From NCBI RefSeq assembly GCF_023074835.1, contig NZ_JALLGW010000001.1, positions 2,976,001-3,040,000 on the forward strand: a DNA stretch of 64,000 nucleotides. Reading direction: 5' to 3'. Shown here piece by piece: positions 11,134 through 19,439 of this stretch. Below the pieces are notes generated by a model. It made no database searches and had not been told where the DNA came from. It was given only the letters and a program-made list of their open reading frames with translations. Position 1 is the first letter of the stretch. Each line of letters begins with the position of its first letter. Source of the DNA: Halomarina salina. Lineage in GTDB: Archaea; Halobacteriota; Halobacteria; Halobacteriales; Haloarculaceae. The position numbers and the translations under genes were made by a program.

Positions 11134-12462
11134 TTACGAGAGCGCGTCGAGGAACGCGTCGAAGAGACCGCTCTCGGGGTGGAAGTGGGCGTACGTGCCG
11201 AGCGTCGCGTACTCGGTCAGCCCCTCGTGGTCGTCGTCGATGCCGTGGCCGCGGATCGTCTCGAAGGCGAATCGGGCGTCGGTCGCCGGGGTCGCCCGCG
11301 AGTAGTGGAACTCGTGGCCGCGGTAGCGTCCGCTCGTTGGCCGGAGCGGCGAGTCGGCGGTCGCCTCCAGTTCGACCATCTCCAGCGCCTGAAGCCCGTC
11401 GTGCATCTCGACGCTCGCCGGGAGCACGCCGGCCATGTCGTAGCGCTCCCCGTCGACAGTCGTCAGGGACTCCGCGAGCGCCATCATACCGCCGCACTCG
11501 CCGAACACGGGCAATCCCTCGGCTGCCGCCCGGCCGAGTTGGTCGAGCGTCGCGCTCTCCGACAGCGTCTCGGCGTGCAGTTCCGGGTAGCCGCCGGGGA
11601 GGTAGACCGCGTCACACGGCGGCAGGTCGTCGCCAGCGACCGGTGAGAACGTAATCACCTGGCCCCCCTCTCCGAGTCGCTCCAGCGTCGCCGGGTAGAC
11701 GAAGCAGAACGCCGCGTCGCGGGCGACGGCGATTCGTCGCTCGTCCCCGGAGACGTCGCGACCCCGACCGATGCGGTCGTTCGGTACGTCGCTCGCCAGT
11801 TTCGGGGGTGTCCGTGCCACCTCCACTAGCGCCTCTGCGTCGAGGTGGCTGGCGGCCTCCGCAAGCGCGTCCGAATCGACGGCCGCCTCGTCGCCGCGGT
11901 GCAGTCCGAGGTGGCGTTCCGGGAGGTCGAGTCCGTCGAGCGGCGGTATCCGACCGAAGTAGGTCAGTCCCTCCGGGAGCGCCTCGCGGATTCCGGTCTC
12001 GTGTCGCCCGCCGTGCGCCTGCTGGGCGACGACGCCGACCACGTCGACGTCCCGGCCCGCGACGGTCGCGTACTCTCGGAAGCCGAGCGCCGTCGCGGCC
12101 ACGCTCTCCATCCCGGCGCTCGCGTCGACGACGAGCACCACTGGTAGGTCGAGCGCCTCGGCGACGGCGGCGGTGCTGTTCACGTCCCCGTCGTACAGCC
12201 CCATCGCCCCTTCGACGACGCAGACGTCGCCCTCGCCGCGGCGGTAGTTCCGGCGGAGACCCGCCTCGCCCTGTAACCACGGGTCGAGCGTCCGCGAGGG
12301 CCGGTCGGCGACGGTGGCGTGCTGGCTCGGGTCGATGAAGTCCGGTCCGGCCTTCGCCGGCCGGACGGCGTAGCCGGCGTCGCCGAGCGCTCGCACGGCC
12401 GCGAGCGTCGCCACCGTCTTGCCGACGCCGGAGGCCGTCCCGGCCAGGACGAGTCCCGGCAT
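11134..12462 (-). CDS. cbiA: Cobyrinate a,c-diamide synthase CbiA
   Basis: 442 residues from the ATG at 12462; a GTG one codon upstream (12465) is equally placed and would give GTGA coupling with cbiZ. The N-terminal ATP-binding part has AGTASGVGKT near residues 7-16 and KAGPDFIDP at about 37-45, and the C-terminal amidotransferase part has the Cys nucleophile in FGECGGMMAL at about 320-329. These are the CbiA/CobB signatures. The enzyme amidates the a and c side chains of cobyrinic acid. It sits between cbiZ and cobA in the operon. Confidence 0.94.
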   Translation of the reverse strand: MPGLVLAGTASGVGKTVATLAAVRALGDAGYAVRPAKAGPDFIDPSQHATVADRPSRTLDPWLQGEAGLRRNYRRGEGDVCVVEGAMGLYDGDVNSTAAVAEALDLPVVLVVDASAGMESVAATALGFREYATVAGRDVDVVGVVAQQAHGGRHETGIREALPEGLTYFGRIPPLDGLDLPERHLGLHRGDEAAVDSDALAEAASHLDAEALVEVARTPPKLASDVPNDRIGRGRDVSGDERRIAVARDAAFCFVYPATLERLGEGGQVITFSPVAGDDLPPCDAVYLPGGYPELHAETLSESATLDQLGRAAAEGLPVFGECGGMMALAESLTTVDGERYDMAGVLPASVEMHDGLQALEMVELEATADSPLRPTSGRYRGHEFHYSRATPATDARFAFETIRGHGIDDDHEGLTEYATLGTYAHFHPESGLFDAFLDALS

Positions 12463-13193
12463 CACGGCGAGAACACCTCCGTGTCGTCGGACGTGACCAC
12501 GCCGTACTCCGCGTCCGCGACGGAGTCGGGCAGGTCTCGTTCTGCGTAGCGCGACCGCAGGCTCTCCCGGACGGCGTCGCGGACGCAGGCCCGCACGGCG
12601 CTCCCGACGGGCGTAGCGCTGCCGGAGAACGTCGCCGTCTCGCCCGCGGGGTCACAGCCAACGACGACGGCGTCCGTGGTGGTCCCCGGGAACCCGGTCG
12701 CCGCGAGGAGCGTCGCCGTCTTCGCCTCGACGGCCACCGCGAGCAGGTTCGCGAGCGCGCCGTCGTCGAGCGCTCGCGTCGTCCCTACGAGGAGGTTCAC
12801 CGTCCCGGCGTTCGTCCGTTCGCCCTCCTCGCCGACCGCCTCGGACTGTCCGGGTCGGTTCACGGCATCGTCCATCGGGAGCGCCGCCGGGTTCGAGACG
12901 CCCGCGGTCGCGTAGACGGTGACCGAGCCAGCTCGCGCCCCGGCGGCGTGCGAGAGGTCGACGCCGGTCAACAGCGCCGGTCCGTCCGTCTCGAACCCGG
13001 CGTCTGCGCGGCGTCCCCGGACGTAGGCGTCGAGGTCGGTCCGGTCCCAGCCCTCCGGGACGCTGACGTTGTACGCCGCGTCGGCGCGGACGAACCCGCC
13101 GTCCCACCCCGAGGAGAGCCAGCGGGCGTCCGGCGACGCGACGCGCAACACGCCGTCGCGGACCGTCGACCCGAACGGCACCGACTCAGACAT
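12462..13193 (-). CDS. cbiZ: Adenosylcobinamide amidohydrolase CbiZ
   Basis: 243 residues from ATG 13193, which overlaps the end of cobD by eight bases. The sequence fits the CbiZ family: a GAGSVTVYATAGVSNPA stretch, an NAGTVNLLVGTTRALDDGALANLLAVAVEAKTATL core, and a TDAVVVG segment. CbiZ cleaves the aminopropanol arm of cobinamide to cobyric acid, so imported incomplete corrinoids can enter the pathway. Its presence beside btuFCD and the CobY branch is the archaeal salvage arrangement. Cytoplasmic. Confidence 0.92.
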   Translation of the reverse strand: MSESVPFGSTVRDGVLRVASPDARWLSSGWDGGFVRADAAYNVSVPEGWDRTDLDAYVRGRRADAGFETDGPALLTGVDLSHAAGARAGSVTVYATAGVSNPAALPMDDAVNRPGQSEAVGEEGERTNAGTVNLLVGTTRALDDGALANLLAVAVEAKTATLLAATGFPGTTTDAVVVGCDPAGETATFSGSATPVGSAVRACVRDAVRESLRSRYAERDLPDSVADAEYGVVTSDDTEVFSP

Positions 13194-14196
13194 CCGCGAG
13201 CGCCTCCAGCAGCCGGTCGTTCTCCTCGGGGAGCCGGACGGCGACTCGGACGTGCGAGTCCAGTCCCCGGAAGGAGGTGGCGTCCCGGACGACGACGCCT
13301 CGCTCGCGGACCTGCTCGACGATGTGGGCGACGTCGCGTTCACCCACGTCGAGCAGGAGGAACGGTGCGTCGGATGGGTGGACCGCGAACCGGTCGTCGA
13401 AGGCGGCGGCCATCCGCTCGCGCTCTGTCCGGACGCGCTCGCGGGTCGCCTCGACGAACGCCGTCTGAGCCATGCAGTGACGACCGACCGCGAGCGCCGA
13501 CGTGCCGAGGTTCCACGTCCGTCGCGCCGCGAGCAGCGCGTCCAGCAGGTCGCCCGTGGCGACGGCGAACCCGGCCCGGATTCCGGGCAGACCGAACAGT
13601 TTGGTGAGCGACCGGGCGACGACGACGCCCTCCGTACCGGCCAGCGACGGCCGGTCGGTGAACCCGAGGAACGCCTCGTCGACGAGCAGCGGCGTTCCCG
13701 AGGCTCGACAGCGGTCGGCGAACGCTCGCAGCTCCCCGTCGTCGTAGGCGTCGCCGGTCGGGTTGTTCGGGTTGCAGACGACGGCGAGCGCGTACTGCTC
13801 GGGGGCCACGTCGAGGAGGGCGTCGTGGGCGACGAACGTCGGGGCCGCTCCCTGGAGTCGGACCTCGCGGCCGTACTCGCCGAAACTCGGGGCCGGGAGC
13901 AGCACGTCGTCGCCGGGGGAGAGCGTCACCTCGACGGCGAGGCGAATCGCCGCGAGACCGCCCGGCGTCGGCACGACCTGCTCGGGCGCGCAGTCGACGT
14001 AGCTCGCGGCGGCCTCGCGGTACTCCCGTGGCGGTTCGGCGGGGTAGCGTCGAGCGTCGTCGAAGCTCTCGACGTGGACCTCGCGCGTGCCCTCGGGGAC
14101 CTGCGGGTTCGTGTTCGCGCTGAAGTCGAGGACGGCCGGGTCGTCCGAACTGCCGTGTGGTTCGCGACCGACCGACCGGACGGCGTCAGCGTCCAT
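13186..14196 (-). CDS. cobD: Threonine-phosphate decarboxylase CobD (PLP fold type I)
   Basis: 336 residues from ATG 14196, overlapping the cobT end by 11 bases; an upstream in-frame start (14256) would intrude further into cobT. It is an aminotransferase-like enzyme: CNPNNPTGD (141-149), DEAFLGF (173-179) and the PLP lysine Lys199 in [15 protein letters not shown]. HisC has the same fold, but the cobalamin context favours CobD, which makes aminopropanol phosphate for the nucleotide loop. The start and spacing indicate translational coupling with its neighbours. Confidence 0.88.
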
Positions 14197-15340
14197 CCGT
14201 GCGCACCTCGTCGGTCGCCTCCCCGTCGGCCGTCTCGTCGTCGGCTGGCTCTCCATCGGTCGATCCTTCGCGAGTGGGTTCGTCGTCCGCTGGCCCTCCT
14301 CCAGCGGCGTCGCCCGCTACAGGACCGATCTCGCGCTCGTAACGGGCGACGACGCGGTCGCGGACGCTCGCCATCTCGACGCCGGCCGTACGGGCCAGCG
14401 CCAGTGCCCCGCCCATGCCCGCGCCCTCCTTCCCGACGCCGTCACTGTAGTGCGCGAGGCCAGCGTGGTCGAGGCGGTCGAATCCGGGGTCCGTGACGGA
14501 CAGTCGGCAGTCGAGAGCCTCGGCCGCGGCGCGCACGTCGACGGAGTCGTCCCCGTCGACGAACGAGGTCGTCGCCAGCGTCAGCGGGTGGTCGACCCCC
14601 GCGTGGCGGACGAGCGCCGCCGCGGCGACCATCTGTGTCCCGCCAGCCAGCGTCACCGGAGCGTCGCGCGCCGCGGCCCCGACGACGAGCCCCATCACCG
14701 TCGCCAGGACGGGGTCGCCCATCCGGGCGACGGCTTCGACCGGGGACCCGGCAAGGGACCCGGCGTCGAGGTCGCTCGCGGTCAGCGCCTCCTCCACGAC
14801 CCGCCGCTTGAGTTCGAGCGGGTTGGTCGGGAGCGACGACGAGACGCCGAACGGTTCGCCGAGTGCGGTGAGCACTCCGAGCGCCGTCGTCGTCCCGCCG
14901 GGAACGCTCTCGCCGACGACGAGGGGACCGTCGGCCGCCCTGCCGACGCGTCTCGCGCGGTCGACTATCTCGGCCGCGTCCGGAACCGGGGTCGGTTCGC
15001 GGATGTCGCTACCCGGTGTCGCCCCCACCTCGACGGTCGGCGCGGCGGACGGAGCCGAGAGGCCGCCGTCGACGACCAGCAGGTCGAAGCCGACCAGTTC
15101 CCGGACGGCGCGGGTGACCAGCGCGGGCGTCGGGCAGCCACCGGGGCTGACCGGCACGGTCGGCGCGTAGACGGGCGTGCCGTACGCGACGAGTTCGGCG
15201 TCGGCCGACGGCGTGTGGTCGAGGAGCGCGGGATTCGCACCGGCGGCGCTGATGCCGTCGATGGCGGCCGTCTCCGTCGTCCCGACCACCAGCGCGAACG
15301 TCGGGTCCGTCGAGTCCGTCGCGACCGGCGAGTCCGTCAC
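14186..15340 (-). CDS. cobT: Nicotinate-nucleotide-dimethylbenzimidazole phosphoribosyltransferase-type protein CobT
   Basis: 384 residues from a GTG that overlaps the cobY stop (GTGA). It belongs to the archaeal CobT branch (TIGR00303-type). Visible family segments are [15 protein letters not shown], a glycine-rich loop like the nucleotide site in bacterial Cob[15 protein letters not shown], and [18 protein letters not shown] near the end of the core. The last 45 or so residues are a repetitive Asp/Glu/Thr-rich tail with no fold signal. Bacterial CobT activates the lower-ligand base to alpha-ribazole phosphate; archaeal members are assigned by context. Confidence 0.88.
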
Positions 15341-15897
15341 AGCAGCGCCTCCGCGAGGTCGGCGTCTGTCGTACGGTTCACGTTGACTGCGAGTCGGGCG
15401 TCGTAGCTCATGTGTATGGTATCGGTGTCGTCGTCCGCGACGAGGTTCACGCCGCTCGGGGCGACCGCGCGGCCGTCGTGGTCGAACGCCGTGTCGACGC
15501 TCGCCCCGAGCGCCTCCTTCAGCGCGACCGGTACGCAGACCGTCGTCGAATCGCCCTCGAACGCGGCGAGGAGCGTGTCGAGGAGCGGACCAGCGAGCAG
15601 GGGGAGGTCGGCGACGACGGTCAGTACGGGTCGCTCCACGCGGTCGAGGGCGAACTGGAGGTCGGCGACGTAGCCCTCGCCGGGTGCGTCGATTCGCTGG
15701 ACCTTCGAGTGGCCGAGATGTGTGGTCGTCTCGGGCACGTGCGGCGAGGCGACGGCGTGGACGGTGTCGACGCGACTTCCCGCGAGTGCGTCGGTGACGC
15801 GGTCCACCATCGGTCGTCCAGCGACCTCGAACAGCGGTTTCTCGGTCGGCGCGTCGAGTCGGGTGCCACGACCGCCGCACATCAGCAGAGCGTCCAC
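15337..15897 (-). CDS. cobY: Adenosylcobinamide-phosphate guanylyltransferase CobY
   Basis: 186 residues from a GTG at 15897 that overlaps the end of cobS by 16 bases. This is the archaeal, non-CobU enzyme that makes adenosylcobinamide-GDP from GTP. The nucleotidyltransferase signature GGRGTRL (8-14) is followed by [14 protein letters not shown], and a VVADLPLL stretch supplies the metal-binding aspartate region. No ATG lies close enough upstream to keep the motif N-terminal. No bacterial-type CobU kinase is needed because CbiZ and CbiB bypass it. Confidence 0.93.
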
Positions 15898-16625
15898 GTC
15901 GTCACCCCCGCAGCGAGCGCCACGACGCGCGCCAGTTCGTTCGTCGCCCCCATCACGTCGCCGTTGACGCCACCGAGTCTGCGGCGTGCCCAGAGTAGCG
16001 TGGCGAGTCCCGTCACGCCCCCAGCGAGAACCGTCACGGCCGAGGCGGGACGCGGCCACGTCAGCGTCGCAGCGGGGAGGGTGAGGACGACCGGAGAGAG
16101 GAGGTCCCGCAGCCCGTTGTCGTCGGTCAGCGCCGACCCGAGGCCCTCGTGGGTCGCCGTGCCGAGACAGACGACGACGGCCGTCGCGAGTTTGGCGCTC
16201 ACCTCCGCGGCGACGACGACCAGGGCGGCTCGGGTCGGGAGTGCGGCCAGTTCGCCCGCGCTCGACCAGAGGCCGAGCACGACGAGCGAGACGGCGACGA
16301 CGGCTCCGACGCCGACCGTCGTGTCCTTCAGCACGCTGCGACGACGCTCGGCGTCGCCGTGGACGACCGCCGCGTCGCCGAGGTCTGCGACGCCGTCGAG
16401 GTGGTTGATGCCGGTGAGGGCGTAACACCACGCGACGAAGACGGCCGCGACGACCAGGGACGGCCCTGGAGCGAGGAGCGGCACCGCGGCGAGTGCGCCG
16501 ACGGGATAGCCGGCCAGCGGGAACGCGACCGGCGTCGTCCGGAACGCCTCCCACGCCGCCTCGTCGCGGCCCACGGGCGCACGCGTGAGGAACCCGAGTG
16601 CGCCACGGAGTGCGGTCGCTACCAC
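15882..16625 (-). CDS. cobS: Adenosylcobinamide-GDP ribazoletransferase CobS
   Basis: 247 residues beginning with GTG at 16625, overlapping the cbiB stop by seven bases. An integral membrane protein with about six to seven helices. The family motif [14 protein letters not shown] (about 72-85) holds the conserved metal-binding aspartates, and LKDTTVG follows. CobS joins adenosylcobinamide-GDP and alpha-ribazole phosphate at the membrane. CbiB, also membrane-bound, is the gene before it. Confidence 0.95.
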
Positions 16626-17521
16626 GCCAGCACCCCGGCGAGGACCGCCGCGAGTCCGCCAGCGACGCCGACCACGCGGACACCCTCACGGGCGTCGCCC
16701 GCAGTGGGCAGTCGTGCGGACGGGTTCAGGACGTAGCTCCCGCGTTTCGCGAGTCGGACGCCGAGCACCGCAGCGAGCGTCGCCATCGGCCACCCCGAGT
16801 TCGGCGACGGCGGGTCGCCCGCCCAGCGACGACTGCGACGGACCGCTCGCGGGTCCAGTGCGGCGAGTGCGACCAGCACCGCGCTGAGCCGGGCCGGGAG
16901 CCACATCACGGCGTCGTCGAGGCGGGCGCTGGCCGTCCCGTGTGGCTTCGACGGGTAGCCGAGCATCGAGTCGAGCGTGTTGACGCCCTTCACCCACGCG
17001 GCCGCGCCAGCGGCGACGGCGAGCGACACCTGCGCCCCGAGCGCGAACGCGAACAGCGGGGCGACGAGGCCGTCCGCGAGGTTCTCGGCGACGCTCTCGA
17101 CCGCCGCGCTCCGGAGTTCGCCGGGCGAGAGCGTCGCGGTGTCGCGGCCGACGAGTCCGCGAATCGCGTCCCGTGCGTGGGCCACGTCGTTCTCGATGGC
17201 GCCGAGGACGTCCGTCGAGAGCGTCAACAGCATCCGGAGGCTACAGAGACAGAACAGCCAGCAGCCAGCGACGAGAGTAGCGACGACCGGACCACTCCGA
17301 CCCGCCAGTGCTGTCGTGCCCGCGACGGTCCCGGCGAACGTCAGGGGGACGACGAGGGCGACGGCAGCACCGACGAGCGTCGGTCGTCCCCACGTCCGGT
17401 CCAGTGGCGCGGCGAGACGGCCGAGGAGCGCGACCGGGTGGACCCTCGCCGGCGGTTCGGCGACCAGTCGGTCCAGCACCACGGCGAGCGCCACGGCGAC
17501 CGTTCCCATCGCCCCCGGCAT
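16619..17521 (-). CDS. cbiB: Adenosylcobinamide-phosphate synthase CbiB
   Basis: 300 residues from ATG 17521, which shares one base with the HAD gene stop (TGATG); an internal ATG at 17509 is a second choice. A polytopic membrane protein. Family signatures are DRLVAEPPARVHPVALLG at the N-terminus, AVESVAENLADGLVAPLFAF in the middle (conserved Asn-Asp), and VNTLDSMLGYPSKPHG. It attaches aminopropanol phosphate, made via CobD, to cobyric acid. It directly follows the HAD gene. Confidence 0.94.
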   Translation of the reverse strand: MPGAMGTVAVALAVVLDRLVAEPPARVHPVALLGRLAAPLDRTWGRPTLVGAAVALVVPLTFAGTVAGTTALAGRSGPVVATLVAGCWLFCLCSLRMLLTLSTDVLGAIENDVAHARDAIRGLVGRDTATLSPGELRSAAVESVAENLADGLVAPLFAFALGAQVSLAVAAGAAAWVKGVNTLDSMLGYPSKPHGTASARLDDAVMWLPARLSAVLVALAALDPRAVRRSRRWAGDPPSPNSGWPMATLAAVLGVRLAKRGSYVLNPSARLPTAGDAREGVRVVGVAGGLAAVLAGVLAW

Positions 17522-18147
17522 CACCGGGCCTCGGTGAGTCGGTCGGAGAGGTTCGTCAGTGGCGTCTCGTCGACGAGAATCGCTCGTCCGCCGACCGCGG
17601 AGACACCGCCGTCGGTCTCCGGGTCGTCGCCGACGTGTATCAGGTCGGCCGGACGCGTTTCGGTCGCCGTCGCAACCGCCTCGAACGCCCGACGGTGCGG
17701 TTTCCGCCAACCACTGTCGACGCTGGCCACGACCGCGTCGAACAGCGACTCGTCGACGGTCGAGCGACGGAGCGTCCGTTCGACGAGGCCGGGGACGCTA
17801 CAGTTCGAGAGGACGGCGACGGACCCTCGCTCGGCGGCCGTCGTGACTGCCGCCCTGGCTCCGAGGCGGGTCTCGACGGGCTTCTCGAACGCGGCCCTGA
17901 CGGCCCGGTGGACGGTCCCGTGCCGGACTTCGACCCCACGACTCGCGAGCGTGTCGCGGGCGTGGGCGACGAGCGAGCGCTCACGACCCGGTTCGACCTG
18001 CTCGTGGGGTTCACGGTACGCCGTCCGCCAGTCGTCCGGGAGAGCGACGCCCCGCTGGCGGAGTTCGGTCGCCACCGCCTCCGACGGGTCGGTCACCGCC
18101 GGTGTCGCGACCAGCGTGCCGAAGAGGTCGAACGAGACGGTCGTCAC
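17521..18147 (-). CDS. HAD-family hydrolase heading the cobalamin operon
   Basis: 208 residues from a GTG at 18147; the open frame continues upstream to a TTG (18234) but gains no conserved residues. HAD motifs are visible: motif I FDLFGT (6-11, Asp nucleophile at 7), a Ser/Thr motif II (VLSNC, about 110), Lys in WRKPHRRAF, and motif IV HVGDDPETD. The form is that of haloacid-dehalogenase-type phosphatases. It overlaps cbiB by one base, so it belongs to the operon. The pathway needs an alpha-ribazole-phosphate (or adenosylcobalamin-phosphate) phosphatase and no CobC or CobZ homologue is present here, so this is a candidate. Substrate is inference. Confidence 0.8.
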   Translation of the reverse strand: MTTVSFDLFGTLVATPAVTDPSEAVATELRQRGVALPDDWRTAYREPHEQVEPGRERSLVAHARDTLASRGVEVRHGTVHRAVRAAFEKPVETRLGARAAVTTAAERGSVAVLSNCSVPGLVERTLRRSTVDESLFDAVVASVDSGWRKPHRRAFEAVATATETRPADLIHVGDDPETDGGVSAVGGRAILVDETPLTNLSDRLTEAR

Positions 18148-18749: not shown

Positions 18750-19439
18750 ATGACCTCGCCGTCGGACGACGACGACAGCGATGACCAGCATCGCTTCCGA
18801 CGGCTGCTCCTCCAGGCGAAAGCGGAGGGCTGTCGCGTCCTCGTCACCGGGGACGTCGGTGCCGACGTTCTGGCGACGCGGAGCCGACGGCTGTTCGGAC
18901 AGGGTGAGAATCGACACCGTCTCTTCGCGGCGACGGCCCTCGGTACCGATAGCATCCGACGCCACCTCCCGGAGACGGTCTCCATCGACGACCAGGACGT
19001 CGAACTGATTCGGCTCGGCGACATCCGCTCGGTGGACGTCACGGAGACGTACTCGACGCCGCCGCACATCGACGACGACAACGAGTTCGCGGCGTTCCGC
19101 TGGCGGGTCGTCGACGCCATCGCGCGTCACCGGGCGGACCACTCGCCCGACCCCGGCGAGTTGCGCGTGGGCGTCGCGCCGCTCGCACCGCTGCTCGACC
19201 AGCACCGCATCGAGTGCATCGACGAGTTCGTCCGCGTCGTGGGGCGAGAGACCGTTCGTTCGAACGGGATGGCGCACTTCCACCTGGGCCTCGACGCGTC
19301 GTCCGACCTCGCTGCACACCTCCTCCCGGAGATGGACGTCCACATCCAGCTCCGTCGACGGACCCCACGCTCGCTCGAACACCGGTGGATACTCCTCCGA
19401 CACAACGTCCACACCGACTGGCTCCCGCTGCAGGAGTGA
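18750..19439 (+). CDS. Haloarchaeal DUF7504-like protein
   Basis: 229 residues, acidic, soluble, no signal. The N-terminus resembles the RecA/KaiC-like haloarchaeal proteins in which RVLVTG opens the core, but here no P-loop follows (GDVGADVLATRSRR), so ATP binding is unlikely. The C-terminal half (VGVAPLAPLLDQHRIECIDEFVRVVGRETVRSNGMAHFHLGL...) is the part I associate with DUF7504 proteins. Function is not known to me. A TATA box at about 18719-18727 suggests a leaderless transcript. It stands alone. Confidence 0.65.
   Translation: MTSPSDDDDSDDQHRFRRLLLQAKAEGCRVLVTGDVGADVLATRSRRLFGQGENRHRLFAATALGTDSIRRHLPETVSIDDQDVELIRLGDIRSVDVTETYSTPPHIDDDNEFAAFRWRVVDAIARHRADHSPDPGELRVGVAPLAPLLDQHRIECIDEFVRVVGRETVRSNGMAHFHLGLDASSDLAAHLLPEMDVHIQLRRRTPRSLEHRWILLRHNVHTDWLPLQE

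What the first reader, a model, noticed from the sequence alone, without database searches (positions are those of the whole stretch)
17521..18147. HAD hydrolase as the missing alpha-ribazole-phosphate or cobalamin-phosphate phosphatase
The cobalamin operon is otherwise complete for late steps, but no CobC- or CobZ-type phosphatase is in the window, and this HAD gene is translationally joined to cbiB at the head of the operon. Seen: HAD motifs and the one-base overlap. Known: archaea use varied phosphatases (CobZ in some). Inferred: this one fills the gap.
Basis: partly seen in the sequence, partly recalled or inferred. Interest (0 to 1): 0.6.

Follow-up and report, generated by a model that had tools for sequence, protein, structure and literature searches.

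The report
Haloarchaeal HAD hydrolase heading vitamin-B12 operon
The first gene of a vitamin-B12 assembly operon in a salt-loving archaeon encodes a small hydrolase that is probably the phosphatase finishing B12's lower loop; this role was already predicted in print for its relatives, and genome comparisons here support it, but nobody has tested it.

Summary
A 208-aa HAD hydrolase (17521-18147, minus strand) shares one base (TGATG) with cbiB and heads a seven-gene overlapping operon HAD-cbiB-cobS-cobY-cobT-cobD-cbiZ. No CobZ-type (PgpA) gene exists in this genome or in 116 relatives. No relative has a CobC above the curated cut-off. A weaker CobC-like gene exists in this genome but does not track CobS, whereas the HAD does. 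In 218 near-complete haloarchaeal genomes 176 have both HAD and CobS. Of 27 lacking CobS, the HAD is gone in 18, decayed in 6 and intact in 3. Its catalytic residues are intact in 105 of 107 genomes with CobS. Two cautions: 15 near-complete genomes have CobS without the HAD, and in this genus two species keep an intact HAD without CobS. An unusual feature is motif I DxFGT: the usual acid/base Asp is an invariant Phe. Best reading: a dedicated but replaceable cobamide nucleotide-loop phosphatase; substrate and activity are untested.

The parts
17521..18147 (-). HAD-superfamily hydrolase (208 aa), candidate cobamide nucleotide-loop phosphatase; orthologue of HVO_0586 / VNG_1577C
   Evidence: PF00702 E 7e-12; synteny in Halobacterium salinarum and Haloferax; AlphaFold pLDDT 96 HAD fold
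18115..18138 (-). motif I region of the HAD: nucleophile Asp7, Phe9 in place of the acid/base Asp, Thr11
   Evidence: Phe9 in 107/107 CobS+ orthologues
17519..17523 (-). TGATG: HAD stop and cbiB start share one base
   Evidence: sequence
16619..17521 (-). cbiB, adenosylcobinamide-phosphate synthase
   Evidence: PF03186 E 2.9e-71; TIGR00380 above cut-off
15882..16625 (-). cobS, adenosylcobinamide-GDP ribazoletransferase
   Evidence: PF02654 E 5.2e-39; TIGR00317 above cut-off
15337..15897 (-). cobY-type guanylyltransferase
   Evidence: TIGR00454 E 3.8e-33, NF045495 E 3.5e-23, both below cut-off; operon position
14186..15340 (-). archaeal cobT-type NaMN-dependent phosphoribosyltransferase
   Evidence: NF003371 above cut-off; TIGR00303 E 2.6e-66 on a slightly truncated query
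13186..14196 (-). cobD, threonine-phosphate decarboxylase
   Evidence: TIGR01140 E 2.6e-86, 289.8 bits against cut-off 290.55
12462..13193 (-). cbiZ, adenosylcobinamide amidohydrolase, without the CobZ domain of CbiS
   Evidence: PF01955 E 2.4e-44; matches only positions 4-195 of 335 of CbiS model NF038002

Best explanation
The gene encodes a Mg-dependent type-IA (C1 helical cap) HAD phosphatase dedicated to assembly of the cobamide lower nucleotide loop. It removes the 5'-phosphate either from adenosylcobamide-5'-phosphate, the product of the CobS reaction, or from alpha-ribazole-5'-phosphate, the product of the CobT reaction. Asp7 would be the nucleophile. Thr11 and Ser114 with Lys149 would hold the phosphate, and Asp174/Asp179 would bind Mg. 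Because Phe9 replaces the usual acid/base Asp, leaving-group protonation and hydrolysis of the aspartyl phosphate must be handled some other way. It is the usual, but not the only possible, provider of this step in haloarchaea. Shown: operon, conservation, co-occurrence, co-loss or decay. Inferred: phosphatase chemistry, substrate, roles of individual residues.
For: Overlapping operon head. HAD next to cbiB in 84/88 same-family genomes and within 4 kb of cobS in 116/124 genomes across the order. HAD tracks CobS: 124 both, 5 HAD only, 11 CobS only, 15 neither; family sample Fisher p 1e-7. In 11 genera containing both CobS+HAD+ and CobS- species, all CobS- species of 10 genera have lost or decayed HAD. 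Active-site residues intact in 105/107 CobS+ genomes against 3/9 CobS- genomes. G050 shows the operon excised from mid-HAD to the end of cbiZ. No CobZ/PgpA in 116 genomes with positive controls. No CobC above cut-off, and CobC-like proteins do not track CobS, p 0.27. Motif IV GDDxxTD is of Mg-phosphatase type and the fold matches HAD IA enzymes at Z 17-19. Independently predicted in PMC8305020.
Against: 15 near-complete genomes, including most of genera g2, g24 and g29, have CobS but no HAD, and the g2 ones and G006 have no CobC-like protein above 80 bits either, so some other phosphatase can serve. G011 and G030, of the window's own genus, keep an intact HAD with dN/dS about 0.2 and no cbiB or cobS. 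G201 has CobS and an unlinked HAD copy without its nucleophile. The canonical acid/base Asp is missing. No biochemical data exist. The statistics are not fully corrected for phylogeny.
Confidence: 0.66

Rival explanations
1. Another phosphatase, such as the CobC-like histidine phosphatase at G000:C1:811214-811744, supplies the step, and the HAD serves the pathway in an auxiliary way, for example as a damage-control phosphatase.
For: The CobC-like protein scores 107 bits to the CobC model. CobS+ genomes without the HAD exist, so alternatives must exist.
Against: CobC-like proteins do not track CobS (p 0.27), are missing in 20 genomes with HAD and CobS, and lie below the curated cut-off in all 116 genomes.
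Confidence: 0.13
2. The HAD acts on another phosphate ester of the same operon, such as threonine phosphate, aminopropanol phosphate or a by-product nucleotide, rather than on the loop phosphate.
For: The whole operon is usually lost together, so co-loss does not show which step the HAD serves. HAD phosphatases vary widely in substrate (general knowledge).
Against: The only unfilled phosphatase step of the late pathway is EC 3.1.3.73 (table of PMC8305020). Hydrolysing intermediates needed by CobD or CbiB would be wasteful.
Confidence: 0.12
3. It is not a phosphatase but a HAD hydrolase of dehalogenase or epoxide-hydrolase type acting on carbon.
For: Motif I DxFGT lacks the phosphatase acid/base Asp in 107/107 orthologues; structural neighbours include haloacid dehalogenases and cis-epoxysuccinate hydrolases. 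Two other HADs of this genome with Tyr at this position pass the dehalogenase model.
Against: It scores 28 bits against the dehalogenase cut-off of 125; it keeps GDDxxTD, unlike those two proteins; no suitable substrate exists in the pathway.
Confidence: 0.06

Closest known systems
HVO_0586 (Haloferax volcanii) and VNG_1577C (Halobacterium), predicted EC 3.1.3.73
   Same: Same family and gene order; orthologues 50-58% identical stand before cbiB in H. salinarum and three Haloferax species. The same function is already predicted.
   Different: None known; those are also untested. The H. volcanii gene itself was not fetched here.
CobZ of Methanosarcina mazei and the CobZ part of CbiS
   Same: Same predicted reaction; archaeal replacement of CobC.
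   Different: Unrelated family; PgpA/PF04608 has no member in this genome or 116 relatives.
CobC of Salmonella
   Same: Same predicted reaction.
   Different: Histidine-phosphatase fold and phospho-histidine chemistry; not homologous to HAD.
Haloarchaeal RuBP phosphatase (NF053830, PMC9700705)
   Same: HAD phosphatase of haloarchaea whose role was found from gene neighbourhood and co-occurrence, then confirmed by assay.
   Different: Score 33 bits against cut-off 330; different pathway.
YihX of E. coli, HDHD3, PH0459
   Same: HAD IA fold; among the closest solved structures.
   Different: About 20% identity; functions unrelated or unknown.

Membership tests
HAD superfamily, type IA (C1 cap) | Asp nucleophile in motif I, Thr/Ser motif II, Lys motif III, acidic motif IV, Rossmannoid core with helical cap | tested here: met
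   D7, S114, K149, D174, D179 conserved in at least 105/107 CobS+ orthologues; PF00702 above cut-off; model matches HAD IA structures at Z about 17-19
canonical HAD phosphatase | DxD in motif I (second Asp as general acid/base) | tested here: not met
   DLFGT or DCFGT; Phe at the second position in 107/107
haloacid dehalogenase type II | TIGR01428 above cut-off | tested here: not met
   28.2 bits against 125.4
CobC (histidine phosphatase) | His_Phos_1 / TIGR03162 match | tested here: not met
   no such match for this protein
CobZ / PgpA | PF04608 match | tested here: not met
   no match; that CobZ belongs to PF04608 is from general knowledge
predicted haloarchaeal EC 3.1.3.73 family (HVO_0586/VNG_1577C) | orthology and position directly upstream of cbiB | tested here: met
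   H. salinarum and three Haloferax species share the gene order
cobamide nucleotide-loop phosphatase (function) | dephosphorylates alpha-ribazole-5'-phosphate or adenosylcobamide-5'-phosphate | not testable with these tools
   needs assay or mutant

The most novel reading that the evidence does not exclude
A third, non-homologous family of cobamide nucleotide-loop phosphatase, confined to haloarchaea, works with a HAD active site whose general acid/base Asp has become an invariant Phe, and it usually decays when the pathway is lost.
Probability: 0.5. Interest if true: 0.45.

Novelty: already known. Interest (0 to 1): 0.3.

Why it matters
It would close one of the last two gaps listed for the late steps of haloarchaeal B12 synthesis and salvage, and add a third unrelated solution for the same reaction. 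The value added here is a genome-wide test of a published but untested prediction, together with an active-site oddity that makes a biochemical test worthwhile.

Tried and rejected
Chance overlap of unrelated genes: rejected by conserved adjacency. CobZ elsewhere in the genome: none found. CobC elsewhere as the main enzyme: only a sub-threshold homologue, which does not track CobS. CobZ domain hidden in cbiZ (a CbiS fusion): cbiZ matches only the first 195 of 335 model positions. Dehalogenase: well below cut-off. A curated RNA family such as a B12 riboswitch between 12000 and 20000: none at gathering threshold. Structure search gave only general HAD IA neighbours and no substrate hint. Family outside haloarchaea: all 35 matches among 197 phylum genomes fall in the same order. 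Rodionov 2003 could not be read; its prediction is cited through PMC8305020. A statement about which residue YihX has at the second motif I position was not verified and is not relied on.

Full report
What is there. The minus-strand ORF 17521-18147 starts with GTG and encodes 208 residues with HAD motifs: FDLFGTLV, LSNCS, GWRKP and HVGDDPETD. Its stop codon shares one base with the cbiB start codon (TGATG). The operon continues with cobS, cobY, cobT, cobD and cbiZ, each overlapping the next. The window lies in a 4.46-Mb haloarchaeal genome, 99.7% complete.

Prior knowledge. PMC8305020 (Pfeiffer and Dyall-Smith, 2021) lists HVO_0586, which precedes cbiB HVO_0587, as predicted EC 3.1.3.73, citing Rodionov et al. 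2003 for VNG_1577C, and states that CobC has no homologue in haloarchaea. A full-text search for these locus tags found no other paper. In Halobacterium salinarum and three Haloferax species the orthologue of the window gene, 50-58% identical, stands directly before cbiB.

Is the gap real? PgpA/CobZ (PF04608) has no match in this genome or in 116 same-family genomes, while the controls in Methanosarcina and Methanocaldococcus ring. The CobC model TIGR03162 has no match over its cut-off in 116 genomes. The window genome does hold a CobC-like histidine phosphatase with 107 bits against a cut-off of 162.9, so the claim 'no CobC homologue' is too strong for the genome as a whole.

Co-occurrence. 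In 116 same-family genomes, 88 have HAD and cbiB, 84 of them adjacent. Against CobS the HAD gives Fisher p 1e-7 and the CobC-like proteins p 0.27. Across the order, in 155 genomes at least 95% complete, 124 have both, 5 HAD only, 11 CobS only and 15 neither; 116 of the 124 pairs are linked. Eight pairs are unlinked; in named loci the unlinked case is mostly Halorubrum, where most genomes checked still have CobS elsewhere.

Decay after pathway loss. Among 218 near-complete genomes from both samples, 27 lack CobS. In 18 the HAD is gone and in 6 it is damaged: in G050 a deletion joins the HAD N-terminus to the CbiZ C-terminus, G071 and G186 have lost the nucleophile, G220 the N-terminal half, and G196 and G215 the invariant Arg148. 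Three keep an intact copy: G011, G030 and G257. Of 107 CobS+ genomes checked, 105 have all of D7, T11, S114, R148, K149, D174 and D179. Counted by genus, 10 of the 11 genera that contain both states follow the pattern in all their CobS- species. These counts are not a formal phylogenetic test.

Exceptions. The near-complete CobS+ genomes of genera g2 and g29, five of the six of g24, G006 and G234 lack the HAD; in several the operon head is btuF instead. They must use another phosphatase. In the window's own genus, G011 and G030 lack cbiB and cobS but keep an intact HAD with dN/dS about 0.2, which hints at a second role there. G201 has CobS and a HAD copy without the nucleophile.

Mechanism. 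AlphaFold gives a confident HAD model with helical cap whose neighbours are type-IA HADs. Motif IV GDDxxTD is that of Mg-dependent HAD phosphatases (general knowledge of the superfamily), but the second Asp of motif I is Phe in every CobS+ orthologue checked. The protein is far below the dehalogenase cut-off. The likeliest chemistry remains phosphate-monoester hydrolysis through an aspartyl phosphate, with acid/base help from elsewhere; this is inferred. From established knowledge, CobT makes alpha-ribazole phosphate and CobS then gives adenosylcobamide phosphate, whose dephosphorylation ends the pathway (PMC9561151). Co-occurrence cannot tell the two substrates apart, since the operon is lost as a unit.

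Verdict.

Noticed in passing
G011 (L043:5803-6444) and G030 (L044:5847-6461): Two species of the window's genus lack cbiB and cobS yet keep an intact HAD orthologue beside a thermosome gene, with dN/dS about 0.2: a possible second function.
   Followed up: partly
L038, L039, L040 (genus g2), L041 (G006), L170, L171 (genus g24), L172 (genus g29): Loci of CobS+ genomes without the HAD; in L038, L041 and L172 btuF stands at the operon head. Their loop phosphatase is unknown.
   Followed up: partly
L203 (G201:C1:2645777-2646373): HAD orthologue lacking nucleophile, motif II Ser and motif IV Asp but otherwise conserved (283 bits), in a genome that has CobS.
   Followed up: no
G000:C2:431637-432167 and 471555-472085 (L002, L003): Two identical copies of a region of at least 3.5 kb about 40 kb apart on contig 2 (or an assembly duplicate).
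   Followed up: no
window 18750-19439 (+): Divergent neighbour of the operon encodes a DUF7504 protein of unknown function.
   Followed up: no
L110, L121, L161 (Halorubrum): In Halorubrum the HAD gene is away from the cobalamin operon, beside a metallo-beta-lactamase-like gene.
   Followed up: partly
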